A stretch of DNA of 33,339 nucleotides, taken from assembly GCA_036387335.1 (NCBI GenBank), contig DASVTZ010000044.1, forward strand, positions 1-33,339, in the 5' to 3' direction. This DNA comes from Longimicrobium sp. GTDB lineage: Bacteria; Gemmatimonadota; Gemmatimonadetes; Longimicrobiales; Longimicrobiaceae. This document shows positions 2,367-33,294 of the stretch, piece after piece. The position numbers and the translations under genes are program-made. Below the pieces are notes generated by a model that was not told the DNA's origin, ran no database searches, and saw only the letters and a program-made list of their open reading frames with translations. Numbering within the stretch: the first letter of the stretch is position 1; each line of letters opens with the position of its first letter.

Positions 2367-2854
2367 CGCACTGGGCGGTGGACACCAACGTCCCGCGCGT
2401 CGCCAACTACCCGCACGCTCCCACTCACGCCTCGCCCGAGTGCGTGCTGGAATGCGTGCGCCGCGTACGCGAGCTCTCCGCTCGCGGCGGCCTCCTGCTG
2501 GATGACGGATGGCGGATCATCCGCGAGTACCAGAACCAGTTGCGCAGCGTGGGGCAGCCAGGCGTGGGCGACGCGTTTCTAAGAGCGGTTCTCACGCGCC
2601 ACGCGGACCCGTCGTGGTGCACCCTGGTTCCGATCACTGCCCACCCGGAACGTGGCTTCGACGAATACCCTGCCGACCCCGACCTCGCCGCGTTTGACCC
2701 TTCTGACCACAAGTTCGTGGCGGTCGCGCTCGCCGGTCCTCAACCGGCTGTCGTCCTCAATGCGGTGGACAGCGATTGGTGGGAGCACCGCGAAGTGCTT
2801 GAGCGGAACGGCGTACGCATCGAGTTCCTCTGCCCGGGCGAGATGGGCGACTGA
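2363..2854 (+). CDS. PIN-like domain nuclease partner of the upstream ATPase
   Basis: The product is 163 residues. It starts AVDTNVPRVAN with Asp7, the first acidic residue of PIN folds. Further acidic positions sit where a PIN active site expects them: Glu55 in WRIIREYQ, Asp115 in FDPSDHKFVAVAL (compare the DxxF/ixAxA motif) and Asp136/Asp138 in LNAVDSDWW, the usual near-terminal acidic strand end. PIN domains are metal-dependent ribonucleases, common as toxins. There is no VapB-like antitoxin nearby; instead the gene overlaps the ATPase by 4 bases, so its activity is more likely gated by that ATPase. The family assignment is by motif spacing only; no specific family name is claimed. Convergent with the next gene, which ends 50 bases away. 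Confidence 0.75.
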   Translation: MTHWAVDTNVPRVANYPHAPTHASPECVLECVRRVRELSARGGLLLDDGWRIIREYQNQLRSVGQPGVGDAFLRAVLTRHADPSWCTLVPITAHPERGFDEYPADPDLAAFDPSDHKFVAVALAGPQPAVVLNAVDSDWWEHREVLERNGVRIEFLCPGEMGD

Positions 2855-2903
2855 TTGCTAGCAGTGCGCCCGTTCTAAAGAGGACAGCGCGTGTCCCCGT
2901 CCC

Positions 2904-5900
2904 TCACTGCTCGATTTCCACCGCCTCCACGTTGTCGAAGCGCTCCAGATCGATCAGCAGCAGGTAGGGGTCAATGCCGGCTTCGGCGGGTTTGCGGGGG
3001 ACGGTGAGCGTGATGGTCTGCAGGCCGGTGCGGATGCGGTGGGGGCGCAGGTAGAGCCGCTCGCCGTACTCCGAGCCCAGGCCGCTGTTGGGGGCGAAGA
3101 CGCCGACCGGCACCCACTCGTTCATCGGCACCTCGGTCTCCACGCCGGCGGGGTCGACGGTGACTTTGCGCGCGCGCAGGCGGAGGGTGACCTGCCAGGC
3201 GCCCTCCGCGATCTGCCTGGCGGAGGCGCGCTCCGTCTTGAGCTGCCAGAAGGTGTTGGCGGCGAAGAGGTCGTGCAGGAGGTAGCGGAGCGAGTCGGGG
3301 GTGACCGCCTCGAGCTCGCGGTAGAGGTCCAGGGTGGTGGCCCGGGGCGCGCCCGCGCGCTGCTTCTCGCGCAGGCGGCGGAAGGCGAGGTTCACGCGGT
3401 CGGCGCCCATGTACTCGCGCAGGGCGAAGAAGGCCGCGGGGCCCTTACGATAGGCCGCGTACGGGTCCATCGCGCGGAGCAGGGGGACGGACTGGCGGAT
3501 GGGCGGGATGGGTGACGGCTGGCGAAAGAACCTCCGCAGCCGCTCCAGGTGCGCGCGCCCGTACGCCTCCTCCACGACGCCCATCCCGGCGTACCAGGCG
3601 AAGCTCTCGGAGAGCAGCGGCGCACCCTCGGCCAGGGCGTACGCGACACCCCACTGGTGCGCCATCTCGTGCGCGATGATGGCGAACGGCATGTCGAGGC
3701 CGTTCGGATCCTCGGCGGGGTTGTAGCGGGAGAAGCCTTCCGTGTAGTCGATCGTGGTCGCGTCGGCGTGCGCGCCCATGCCGCTGCCGGGGTTTTCGAC
3801 GAGGCGAATGAAGCTGTGCGGGTACGGGCCGAACTCGCGGCTGTTGTGCTCCAGCGAGGCGCGCACGCTGCGGAGGATGCGCGCCAGGTTCGCGGCGTGC
3901 CGCGGGTGATGGAAGACCTGGATCGTCACGGGCCGCCCCGCGCCCGACCTGGGCGTCCAGCGCTCCTCGTGCACGGCGTAGCGCGCGGAGAAGAAGCGGT
4001 ACTCGTTGCCGATCGGGGCGTCGGTGGCGTAGTGGAAGTACCGGCGCCCGTTCGTGGTCCACGTGCGGCGCAGCAGGCCGGGCGCCACGGCGGTCTGGTC
4101 GCCATCGGTGCCGATGACCGTTTCGACGGCGATGGGCGCGGCGCCGGTGAAGTCGCCCGCTCCGCCGGTGACGTCCCCGCCTGCCTCGACCTCGGCGAGC
4201 GAGGGGAAGAGGCGGCGCGGCGAGAGCCCGTGCGCCCGCCGGTCGCTGGGCTTGAACAGCTCGCGGCCGGGATCGTAGCCGATCTCGGGGAGGAAGTCGT
4301 TGGTGAAGAAGCTGCTGGCCGCCGTCACCGAGCGCCCCGCGCCGCTGTTGCGGAAGCCGCGCGGCTTGATGTGGATCGCGAAGCTGAGCCGCAGCGATTC
4401 GCCGGGCCCGAGCGGCTGCTTCAGCGCGTAGATGGCGTGGCCGAGATCCTCGTCCGCGACGACGCGCGTGGCGGGGCGGTCGAAGGAGATGGCGCCGGTC
4501 TGCACGCCGGGGCTGGTGGCCAGGTGGATCGTGTCGATGGGCACCTGCGTGCGGTTCACGAGGAGGTGGGAGCCGCGCACCTCCACCTCCCGCCGACGGG
4601 GATGGATCTCCATGTGCAGCTTCGTCCCCGCGATCCGCGGCTGAGGGGCGTTCGCGTACCGCCCGAAGCGCCGCTCGTACAGGGCCTGCCGCTCCGCCCG
4701 CTCGAACGGGGAAGCGTACTCGTTCAGCACGTTGGTGTTGTAGAAGACGAAGCCGCCCAGCGCGAGCACGAGCCCCGCCGCCGTCGCGGCCGCCACCGCC
4801 GTGGGACGCGTGAAGCGGAGGCGCGCGAGCTGGAGCCGCACGCGCGGGCGCCCCTCCAGCCCCCGCATCCAGAACACCCGCGCCACAACCGCCAGCAGCA
4901 GCGCCCAGGCCGCCCAGTAGAGCATGAACCACGTCCACGGCCCCAGTGACGCGCCGAATCCGCGCATGTCCGAGTAGGTCCACCTGGGCGCGGAGCCGTA
5001 GACGAGCAGGTCGTGGTCGATCCCCAGCCAGGCGGCGAAGGCGATGAAGAAGTAGGCGAGCAGCGCCAGCAGGTGGCCGAGGTACTTCTGATTGACCAGC
5101 CCCTGCACCACCAGGGCGAGCACGGCGAAGAGGAGGTACTCGGGTAGCTGGAGGCCGAAGAGGACCTTGATGTAGAGGCCGATCTCGAACTTGTAGTATC
5201 CCATCCTCACCTGCACCGCCATCCCGACCGCCATCAGCAGCGCCATCCACACGGCCAGGACCAGCCCGAGCCCCAGGAACTTGCCGGCGAAGCGCACCCC
5301 GTCCGGCACCGGCGCCGCGTCGGTGATCTCGCCCAGCCCCGCCTCCCGCTCGCGCCAGACCAGCTCGCCGGCGTAGAGGACGATGAACAGCGGCGTGATC
5401 ACCCACTGGGTGAAGGGCTGCGTGAGGGAGGCGGTCAGGAAGGTGAGCACGTACTCCGTCCGCGGCAGCAGCGGCGTCCCCGAGCTCTCGAAGTTCTGGG
5501 GGAGGACGATGACGGCGATCACGGCAATGCCGGCCAGCACGATGAGCCCGCCGCGGCTCTTTGCGATCGTGCGGAACGAGTCCCACGCGATCGCGAGCGT
5601 CTGGCGCGCGCGGCTCGCGAAGCCGAACGCCTGCTGGACGTGCGGCACGGCGATCGGTGCGGTGCTGGCGATGTCGCTCCCGGACGGCGTCGGCGCGTGC
5701 GCATCGCCCCTGTGCCTGCCGAAGCGCGCGATGCGGCTCCACCACACGGTCGCCGCCAGGTGCTCGAAGCGGAAGCGCGCGTAGGTGAAGGCGAGCGTGG
5801 CGAGCGCGACGCCCGCCCACACCAGGCGCCCGTGGAGCAGCGGGCCTTCGAGGGCGATCAGCCGCGTGCTCTTTTCGATCGGCGACCATCCCAGCACCAC

Positions 5901-31716: not shown

Positions 31717-31762
31717 GTCTCACGCGGAGGCGCGGAGACGCAGAGAAAAGCCTCACACAGAG
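31717..31762. repeat. Left arm of a dispersed long palindrome (interrupted by the IS)
   Basis: The first 25 bases (31717-31741) are the exact reverse complement of 33270-33294, and CTCACACAGAG (31752-31762) that of 33241-33251. Together they form the two sides of one long inverted repeat into which the IS is inserted. Such 'CACGCGGAGGCGCGGAG...CACAGAG' elements recur in intergenic regions of related genomes (my recollection, not verified here). Confidence 0.75.
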
Positions 31763-31766
31763 TTGG

Positions 31767-31778
31767 TATGAGAAGGCT
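31767..31778 (+). repeat. IS left subterminal inverted repeat
   Basis: TATGAGAAGGCT, the exact reverse complement of 33169-33180; four bases inside the inferred left end. Confidence 0.8.
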
Positions 31779-31867
31779 GCCCCCGGCCGGTCGCGGCGTA
31801 GCGTAGATTACGCTCGCCAGGGAAATGACCGTTTACGGGCAAGACGCCCCGAAGCCGGAGGACAGCC

Positions 31868-32926
31868 ATGCGCAGCGATACGGTGTGGTTCCCGAAGATT
31901 ACCATCGGGTTTGACCTTGGGGACCGGAAAAGTCATACCTGCGAGGTGGACGAGACATCGCGAGTGATCCGCACCGCGGTGGTGCAGACGACGCGAAGCG
32001 CGGTGGAGGCGTACTTCGGATGTCGGGAGCGGTGCCGCGTGGTGATGGAGGCGGGAACGCACTCGCCGTGGATCTCGCGCCAGATCGCGGAGCTGGGCCA
32101 TGAGGTGGTGGTCGCGAATCCGAGCGAGCTGTATGGAAGCAGGCGGCGCAAGAAACGCAACGACCGCACGGATTCGGAGTTCCTGGCGCGGCAGGGCAGA
32201 GCCGACGTGAAGCTGTTGCACGCTGTGCAGCACCGGAGCGCGAAAGCGCAGGCACACCTGGAGCTGATTCGAGCGCGGGACCAGTTGGTGCGGGTGCGCA
32301 CCAAGCTGATCAACCACGTGCGCGGCGCGGTCAAAGCGATCGGAGGACGGGTCACGATCTGCTCGGCGGAGGTGTTCGCCGGACGCGCCGCCCATCAGAT
32401 CCCCTGTGAGCTGCGGGTCGTGCTGGAGCCGATGCTGGCCGTCATCACGGACGTGACACAGCGGATCAAGGCGATGGACCGGCAGGTGGAGCAGATCGCT
32501 CTGGAATACCCGGCGGTCGCCCGCCTGCAGCAGCTGAAGGGAGTGGGGGCGCTGACCGCGCTGGCGTTCGTGCTCCTGATCGAGGACCCGAGGCGCTTCA
32601 AGCAGAGCCGGGACGTGGGGCCGTACTTCGGGCTGGTGCCGCGCCTGGACGACAGCAGCGACAGCACGCCTCAGCTCGGCATCACGAAAGCGGGCGACGA
32701 GCTGGGCCGCCGCCTCCTGGTCAGCGCAGCACAATACATCCTGGGACCGTTCGGTCCCGAGTGCGACCTGCGGCGCTTCGGGAGTGCGATCGCGGCGCGC
32801 GGCGGGAAGAACGCCAAGAAGCGAGCGGTCGTAGCGGTGGCACGCAAGCTCGCCGTGCTGCTGCACCGCCTCTGGGTCACGGAGGCGGCATACGATCCAG
32901 ACCGGCAGAGCAAGCGGGCCGCGTAG
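31868..32926 (+). CDS. IS110-family transposase (DEDD recombinase)
   Basis: The product is 352 residues from ATG 31868, with GGAGG just upstream. The N-terminal RuvC-like DEDD domain shows Asp16 in IGFDLGDRKSH, Glu61 in VVMEAGTHSPW and the acidic pair in RNDRTDSEFLAR (Asp98 and Asp101). A helical linker follows, then the C-terminal Transposase_20 domain (LQQLKGVGALTALAFVLLIEDPRRF) and GPYFGLVPR...GITKAGDELGRRLL with the catalytic serine region. The Tnp ends KRAA, full length for IS110 members. It excises a circular form and reinserts it at a target matched by a structured RNA. The frame is intact, so the element may be active. Confidence 0.95.
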   Translation: MRSDTVWFPKITIGFDLGDRKSHTCEVDETSRVIRTAVVQTTRSAVEAYFGCRERCRVVMEAGTHSPWISRQIAELGHEVVVANPSELYGSRRRKKRNDRTDSEFLARQGRADVKLLHAVQHRSAKAQAHLELIRARDQLVRVRTKLINHVRGAVKAIGGRVTICSAEVFAGRAAHQIPCELRVVLEPMLAVITDVTQRIKAMDRQVEQIALEYPAVARLQQLKGVGALTALAFVLLIEDPRRFKQSRDVGPYFGLVPRLDDSSDSTPQLGITKAGDELGRRLLVSAAQYILGPFGPECDLRRFGSAIAARGGKNAKKRAVVAVARKLAVLLHRLWVTEAAYDPDRQSKRAA

Positions 32927-33168
32927 CCCCACGCTGAACTTGTGAGAGGGCAGACTCGCCCCACATACCTCGCCGCCGAAGACTGCGATCTGTGTCTTGG
33001 TCCGAAGCTGAGGCCGCAACAGAGTTGGCAGCGTCGGGAGAGGTCATCGGATACCAGCATGCACCGGCGCCCAAGAGCGTGCAGTCCAGAGTGCGGATAG
33101 AAGAGCGGTCCGGGGCGAGTTGCCGGCCAGAGGCCGGCAGGGCCACCACGTTGGCCCTTGACAGACAA
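32927..33168 (+). ncRNA. Candidate bridge (guide) RNA of the IS1111-like element
   Basis: No gene is present in these ~240 bases between the transposase stop and the right inverted repeat. The end has two abutting stem-loops: TGCCGGCC/GGCCGGCA (33121-33128, 33132-33139) with loop AGA, and AGGGCCA/TGGCCCT (33139-33145, 33152-33158). IS1111-type members encode their bridge RNA at the right end. The exact ends and the target/donor loops are not assigned. Confidence 0.35.
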
Positions 33169-33180
33169 AGCCTTCTCATA
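33169..33180 (+). repeat. IS right subterminal inverted repeat
   Basis: AGCCTTCTCATA, the exact reverse complement of 31767-31778; five bases inside the inferred right end. Confidence 0.8.
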
Positions 33181-33185
33181 GAAGA

Positions 33186-33294
33186 ACACAGAGGGAACAG
33201 CAAGCCACAGAGACCTCTTCTTTCAGTTCTCTCTCTGTGTCTCTGTGTGAGCCCCGCCGTTCCACCTCCGCGTCTCCGCGCCTCCGCGTGAGAC
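33186..33294. repeat. Right arm of the dispersed long palindrome
   Basis: Continues the host repeat after the IS: it opens with the second ACACAGAG copy, holds CTCTGTGTGAG (33241-33251), and ends in the 25-base complement of 31717-31741 (33270-33294). No gene is seen from here to the end of the window. Confidence 0.72.

What the first reader, a model, noticed from the sequence alone, without database searches (positions are those of the whole stretch)
31763..33193. Complete IS1111-type element with defined ends inside a host palindrome
The ends can be drawn from the sequence: 12-base perfect subterminal inverted repeats and flanking ACACAGAG copies. The host DNA on both sides folds together (25-base perfect complement, then CTCACACAGAG/CTCTGTGTGAG), so the IS sits in a long dispersed inverted repeat. 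IS1111 elements are known to prefer repeated hairpin targets.
Basis: partly seen in the sequence, partly recalled or inferred. Interest (0 to 1): 0.6.

Follow-up and report, generated by a model that had tools for sequence, protein, structure and literature searches.

The report
RNA-guided insertion element in a repeat
A small jumping gene of a known RNA-guided family has inserted, at one precise point, into one copy of a hairpin repeat that is scattered through a bacterium's genome; its closest relatives mostly sit in the same kind of repeat and carry guide RNAs that tend to fit each host's own spelling of it.

Summary
A complete IS1111-type element is present and probably intact: DEDD transposase (352 aa), 12-bp perfect subterminal inverted repeats, and a 256-nt non-coding region after the gene. 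Empty repeat copies in the same genome place the junction at 31760|33183 (IS 31761-33182, with the IS1111 rule of a 7-bp left and 3-bp right extension). Joining 31762 to 33194 deletes a host octamer: 0 of 29 empty copies carry that join, 21 of 29 the corrected one. The flanking ACACAGAG copies are host repeat, not a duplication. The non-coding region encodes a predicted bridge RNA (seekRNA); four guide segments can be found and covary with target and ends across relatives. The target belongs to a dispersed, mostly intergenic hairpin family of CRCRGAG octamers; 269 guide-matching sites occur in this genome, one IS copy. Five close relatives form one clade with it; four of them also sit in CRCRGAG repeats, and four of five T guides fit their own target best. 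New member of a known kind. Extras: guides that seem to follow a drifting repeat, a clade-specific Ser-Ser for Ser-Gly, and an apparently undescribed repeat family.

The parts
31717..31745 (+). Outer left arm of the host hairpin repeat (GCGGAG octamers)
   Evidence: 28 of 29 complementary to 33266-33294; same module in empty copies
31752..31760 (+). Left half of the target site, CTCACACAG
   Evidence: Continuous with AGAACACAGAGG in empty copies
31761..33182 (+). IS1111-type insertion sequence, 1422 bp (equivalently 31763-33184; core AG shared with the host)
   Evidence: Ends by the 7-bp/3-bp rule and by empty sites
31761..31767 (+). Left terminal extension AGTTGGT (starts with core AG)
   Evidence: Left extension AGnnnnn in most relatives with paired sTIRs
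31767..31778 (+). Left subterminal inverted repeat TATGAGAAGGCT
   Evidence: Perfect complement of 33169-33180
31868..32926 (+). DEDD (IS110/IS1111) transposase gene, 352 aa, no internal stop; GGAGG at 31857-31861 before the ATG
   Evidence: model matches the IS621 and ISCro4 recombinases
32967..33117 (+). Predicted bridge RNA (seekRNA) region inside the 3' non-coding region; RNA ends not known
   Evidence: Conserved columns and paired stems in 32 relatives
32988..32998 (+). T guide (AUCUGUGUCUU): pairs with the top strand of the right target half
   Evidence: 7 of 8 to its own target; family test
33018..33024 (+). B guide (AACAGAG): pairs with the bottom strand of the left target half and core
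   Evidence: ACAG|AG matches 31757-31762; 4 of 6 in register before the core; family test
33051..33056 (+). Donor guide for the left end (AUACCA)
   Evidence: Complement of TGGTAT in the left end; 6 of 7; family test
33096..33103 (+). Donor guide for the right end (GAUAGAAG)
   Evidence: Same as right-end ATAGAAG; the A/G variant agrees in 32 of 32
33158..33163 (+). -35-like TTGACA, 5 bases before the right sTIR
   Evidence: TTGAC[AT] near the right end in 42 of 54 elements; promoter role in the circle inferred
33169..33180 (+). Right subterminal inverted repeat AGCCTTCTCATA
33180..33182 (+). Right terminal extension AGA (its first base is also the last base of the 12-bp repeat)
   Evidence: AGA or GGA followed by host AG in most relatives
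33183..33193 (+). Right half of the target, AGAACACAGAG (host)
   Evidence: Present in empty copies
33230..33251 (-). Opposite inner arm of the same hairpin; on the minus strand it holds an intact exact guide match, CACACAGAGACACAGA
33266..33294 (-). Outer right arm of the host hairpin

Best explanation
This is an IS1111-group insertion sequence that moves by bridge-RNA-guided site-specific recombination. The element would excise as a circle with abutted ends. The RNA encoded after the transposase gene would pair by two donor guides with those ends and by two target guides (T: AUCUGUGU, B: ACAGAG) with a host site. The transposase (RuvC-like DEDD plus catalytic serine S263) would join the two at a shared AG core without net duplication. 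The target is the CTCACACAG|AG(A)ACACAGAG stretch in one arm of a dispersed hairpin repeat, so the element was directed to a multi-copy, mostly intergenic site. Shown by sequence: ends, empty sites, guide-target and guide-end covariation, protein family and fold. Inferred from homologues: circle, RNA production, recombination chemistry, present activity.
For: Protein: Pfam DEDD_Tnp_IS110 and Transposase_20 over cut-off; NCBIfam IS110 RNA-guided transposase, 198.5 bits against a cut-off of 140; model pLDDT 89.7, best PDB hits the IS621 and ISCro4 bridge-RNA complexes. Ends: 12-bp sTIR and 7/3 extensions as stated for IS1111 and as in most relatives with paired sTIRs. Empty sites: 28 of 29 favour 31760|33183. 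Guides: T guide 5.54 of 8 to its own target against 2.84 to others (57 elements), B guide 4.61 of 6 against 1.61 (46 elements), 0 of 5000 permutations as good for either. Donor-left guide 5.29 of 7 against 3.99, 0 of 5000 (28 elements); donor-right A/G agrees in 32 of 32. T before B is the IS1111 order. RNA structure: 17 pairs, 11 with changes on both sides that keep the pair. Targets: 269 exact ACAGAGN{0,1}ACACAGA sites in G000, 0 in the five genomes G014, G308, G349, G282 and G330 that host the other clade members. By arithmetic, a random insertion would hit such a site with probability about 269/(2 x 5.82 Mb) = 2e-5.
Against: One copy only in this draft genome, so orientation and site specificity of this very element rest on relatives. 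The T guide fits the occupied site only with a one-base offset (7 of 8; 1 of 8 in the other register), while exact matches, including one in the other arm of the same hairpin, are empty. Its B guide matches only 4 of 6 before the core. 16 of 57 elements have T matches of 4 or less and 7 of 46 have B matches of 3 or less. Permutations ignore relatedness. The family's Ser-Gly motif is Ser-Ser here, which might impair activity. No transcript or transposition data.
Confidence: 0.92

Rival explanations
1. The element recognises the hairpin shape of the repeat, not its sequence by RNA guides.
For: The host DNA is a real palindrome (25-base perfect outer arms; 38 paired columns in 20 copies), and IS elements in REP palindromes are known (passages of PMC1525189).
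Against: The insertion point is in one arm, away from the apex, where both guides match. Most relatives with the same ends have different targets that covary with their guides. The flanks of L062 and L178 show only short inverted matches of 10 and 8 bases.
Confidence: 0.05
2. One reading: the IS is 31763-33193 and ACACAGAG is a target duplication.
For: ACACAGAG stands on both sides.
Against: The 7/3 rule and the host AG in relatives set the right end at 33182.
Confidence: 0.02
3. The IS landed in this repeat by chance because the repeat is abundant.
For: The repeat is common: 176 exact CACACAGAGN{0,1}ACACAGA sites.
Against: Those sites are a tiny part of the genome; the guides match the point of insertion; four of the five closest relatives sit in the same octamer family.
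Confidence: 0.03
4. The locus is an assembly chimera between an IS contig and different repeat copies.
For: Draft genome of 265 contigs; the IS lies near a contig end and the repeat is multi-copy.
Against: The two outer arms match each other, including the GGCGC/GACGC variant position (28 of 29), as arms of one copy often do (column pair 22/178: 13 of 20 A-U or G-C).
Confidence: 0.04

Closest known systems
ISPa11 (IS1111 family, Pseudomonas aeruginosa REP)
   Same: Inserts inside a dispersed intergenic palindrome at a fixed point; downstream NCR yields a seekRNA with T then B guide (PMC11187229: abstract, sections 4, 6, 9 and 13 read, further passages; PMC1525189: passages)
   Different: Different repeat sequence and host phylum; six copies in PAO1 against one here; sequences not compared here
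IS621 (IS110 group, E. coli REP)
   Same: Bridge-RNA-guided recombination at a dinucleotide core, insertion into REP (PMC11208160: passages and section 12; PMC11208158: passages); the model of this transposase has the same fold (TM-score 0.70/0.77, 20% identity)
   Different: IS621 has its RNA in the left end and no long sTIR; here the RNA lies after the gene and the guide order is that of IS1111
ISEc11 / ISXne4 pair (natural reprogramming)
   Same: Related elements whose guide segments differ and match their own different targets (PMC11187229 passages)
   Different: Here the targets are spellings of one host repeat family in several genomes, not unrelated sites

Membership tests
IS1111 group of the IS110/IS1111 families | DEDD RuvC-like N-terminal domain plus C-terminal Transposase_20 domain | tested here: met
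   D16, E61, D99 and D102 conserved in nearly all 33 rows
IS1111 group of the IS110/IS1111 families | Subterminal inverted repeats, usually 11-13 bp | tested here: met
   12 bp perfect; criterion from PMC11187229
IS1111 group of the IS110/IS1111 families | Asymmetric terminal extensions, 7 bp left and 3 bp right | tested here: met
   AGTTGGT and AGA, counted from the 11-bp core of the sTIR, agree with empty sites
IS1111 group of the IS110/IS1111 families | Longer non-coding region downstream of tnp | tested here: met
   256 bp after the gene against 107 bp before it (coordinates)
IS1111 group of the IS110/IS1111 families | seekRNA guides with the top-strand match 5' of the bottom-strand match | tested here: met
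   T guide 32988, B guide 33018-33019; prediction from sequence only
IS1111 group of the IS110/IS1111 families | GL-P----S(T)G motif (a consensus with stated exceptions such as TA, not a stated criterion of membership) | tested here: inconclusive
   GLVPRLDDSS: the catalytic-position serine is invariant (33 of 33) but the glycine is serine in this clade (6 of 33 rows)
IS1111 group of the IS110/IS1111 families | Circular intermediate and RNA bound to the transposase | not testable with these tools
   Needs experiment
REP elements (host repeat) | Short palindromes, intergenic, many copies per genome | tested here: met
   24 of 29 (G000) and 24 of 30 (G005) sampled places intergenic by a crude caller; 176 and 963 exact sites
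REP elements (host repeat) | Association with a REP-associated tyrosine transposase (RAYT) | tested here: not met
   2 Y1_Tnp matches in G000; no repeat near one, nearest repeat about 1.35 kb away in the other. The repeat is therefore called REP-like, not REP

The most novel reading that the evidence does not exclude
A clade of IS1111 elements with a Ser-Ser in place of the Ser-Gly motif has stayed tied to one family of octamer hairpin repeats across families of Gemmatimonadota, and its bridge-RNA guides change by point substitutions that follow each host genome's spelling of the repeat: a natural series of guide reprogramming along a moving target.
Probability: 0.4. Interest if true: 0.55.

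Novelty: new member of a known kind. Interest (0 to 1): 0.36.

Why it matters
It is a clean worked example of an IS1111 element whose ends, target and four guide segments can all be read from sequence, and it corrects a plausible but wrong boundary. The clade suggests bridge-RNA targeting evolving step by step inside one repeat family, which could inform how guides and targets co-change. It also points to an apparently undescribed, strongly amplified repeat family and to a naturally altered catalytic loop (Ser-Ser) that could be tested.

Tried and rejected
A genome-contig scan with the single protein found no relative; the scan with alignment A1 found 130 and kept 80. Phmmer against PDB sequences found nothing at E 0.001; the fold search did. 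Rfam gave no match for the window and five loci. RAYT as mobiliser of the repeat: not supported by position. Covariation as proof of the host hairpin: only 2 of 38 pairs change on both sides; the copies are too alike, so the palindrome rests on complementarity. The reversed-pattern control is not independent because the octamers are tandem; it is clean only. Sigma-70 promoter at the circle junction: TTGACA is conserved (42 of 54), but in the window no convincing -10 was seen at usual spacing by eye; left as inference. L064 (sixth clade member) shows no clear match of its guides to its flanks by eye, and a spurious end pair was drawn for it. L178's T guide fits its right flank poorly (4 of 8).

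Rows dropped before counts: L066, L083 and L097 as the same elements as L034, L035 and L037; L033, L064, L081, L111, L134 and L139 lacked guide anchors (L033 read by hand); loci without a right inverted repeat gave no guide row; places with under 12 right-flank bases were left out. One search used 32 of the 63 seekRNA regions (28 of them with a left end). The tree dropped 12 rows by name (duplicates, partial or doubtful) and 7 with stops. In one search the motif was not located in 20 of 92 rows. One search scored 40 of 591 candidates, so its 109 matches are not a copy count.

Full report
What is there. The window (contig 44 of a 5.82-Mb, 265-contig genome, G000) holds one transposase gene of the IS110/IS1111 families at 31868-32926. 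The same element sequence in L034/L066, L035/L083 and L037/L097 ties the window's order, and for L037/L097 its family f1, to records titled Gemmatimonadetes; this naming is an inference from shared contig lengths and sequences. The 12-bp subterminal inverted repeats are perfect.

Ends. IS1111 elements have a 7-bp extension outside the left repeat and 3 bp outside the right (PMC11187229, introduction). Applying this to the window and to relatives with paired repeats gives left extensions that mostly begin with AG and right extensions AGA or GGA followed by host AG, so the IS is 31761-33182 with an AG core.

The host repeat. Copies in G000 are a two-tier palindrome of octamers, outer GCGGAGAC-type and inner ACACAGAG-type. 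Exact CACACAGAGN{0,1}ACACAGA occurs 176 times in G000 and 0 times reversed. In 99 genomes (G000 and 98 relatives) it occurs in 11: 8 of the 10 of the genus, with 2 to 963 sites, and 3 others with 1 to 11. In G005 (963 sites) it is a short hairpin, often close behind a stop codon (seen by eye). 24 of 29 G000 and 24 of 30 G005 places sampled were intergenic by a crude GC3-based caller. No paper in the held library contains the five octamer strings searched, and a search of Gemmatimonadetes with repeat terms showed no description among its 20 listed titles of 434 papers. The repeat family is thus apparently undescribed, within those searches.

The guide RNA. The 3' non-coding region aligns across 32 relatives (the window included) with highly conserved anchors (GACTGCG, GCAGC, GAGTGCG). 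It folds into a target-loop stem with covariation, 11 of 17 pairs having changes on both sides. T and B guides match their own targets much better than other elements' targets: 5.54 against 2.84 of 8 in 57 elements and 4.61 against 1.61 of 6 in 46 elements, with 0 of 5000 permutations as good. The donor guides behave likewise: left end 5.29 against 3.99 of 7 in 28 elements with 0 of 5000; right-end A/G in 32 of 32. The permutations do not correct for relatedness. In the window the T guide matches 7 of 8 with a one-base offset and the B guide 4 of 6 before the core plus the AG core. An exact guide match remains empty in the opposite arm of the same hairpin.

The clade. A tree of 73 proteins puts the window element with L033, L062, L063, L064 and L178 (support 100/98). 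Five of these six sit in CRCRGAG repeats. The exception is L064. L033 has lost its left end, so only its right flank was seen. Guide against target in those five: each of four T guides fits its own target best (7 of 8, against 6 or less elsewhere); L178 does not stand out (4 of 8 to its own, 4 of 8 to two others); the B guides discriminate poorly. The window's guide target occurs 269 times in G000 and 1260 in G005 but 0 times in G014, G308, G349, G282 and G330. L063's occurs 18 times in its host G308, 7 in G000, 2 in G005, 1 in G282 and 0 in G014, G349 and G330. The listed G014 repeat sites are almost all of the GCGGAG spelling. This suggests that the guides follow the host's spelling. With one element per host it is suggestive, not shown.

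Catalytic loop. In 33 aligned proteins the serine at position 263 is invariant and the next residue is glycine in 27 and serine in exactly the six clade members. In IS621 the equivalent glycine G242 bonds to D102 and steadies the catalytic loop (PMC11208158, passages). Whether serine still allows activity is unknown; its conservation in six diverged elements argues that it does. The AlphaFold model has low confidence at 262-264.

Verdict. An IS1111-group element with a complete predicted bridge RNA, sitting at a guide-matching site in a REP-like repeat. Elements of these families in REP sequences are known (ISPa11, ISPpu9 and ISPpu10; PMC1525189 passages; PMC11187229), and natural guide changes are known. 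So this is a new member of a known kind, with three points worth following: repeat-tracking guides, the Ser-Ser motif, and the amplified repeat family. Present activity, RNA production and the circle are inferred.

Noticed in passing
G005 (L144-L173) and other genomes of the genus: The octamer hairpin repeat varies from 0 to 963 exact sites among 10 genomes of one genus, mostly intergenic, with no known mobiliser found.
   Followed up: partly
window 32654-32659 (codons of S263-S264): The Ser-Gly motif of the transposase is Ser-Ser in exactly the six-member clade.
   Followed up: partly
window 33230-33251, minus strand: An intact exact guide target lies in the other arm of the same hairpin as the IS.
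   Followed up: no
L033 about 2520-3600: The relative in G014 has lost its left end; the adjoining sequence looks by eye like another transposase gene (not searched).
   Followed up: no
G016 contigs 35, 37, 82, 86: Fragments of 53-73% identical transposases suggest decayed copies of close relatives in the same family.
   Followed up: no
G000:C169 (L142) and G000:C7 (L143): Two Y1_Tnp (RAYT or IS200-like) genes, one with an internal stop; neither is flanked directly by the octamer repeat.
   Followed up: partly
L085, L088, L098: Distant relatives in other lineages sit in CACAAAG/CACAGAG-like sites, for example AACCACAG|AGAGATCACAGAGG, but the octamer pair pattern was absent in two of their three genomes (0 in G429 and G430, 7 in G431).
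   Followed up: partly
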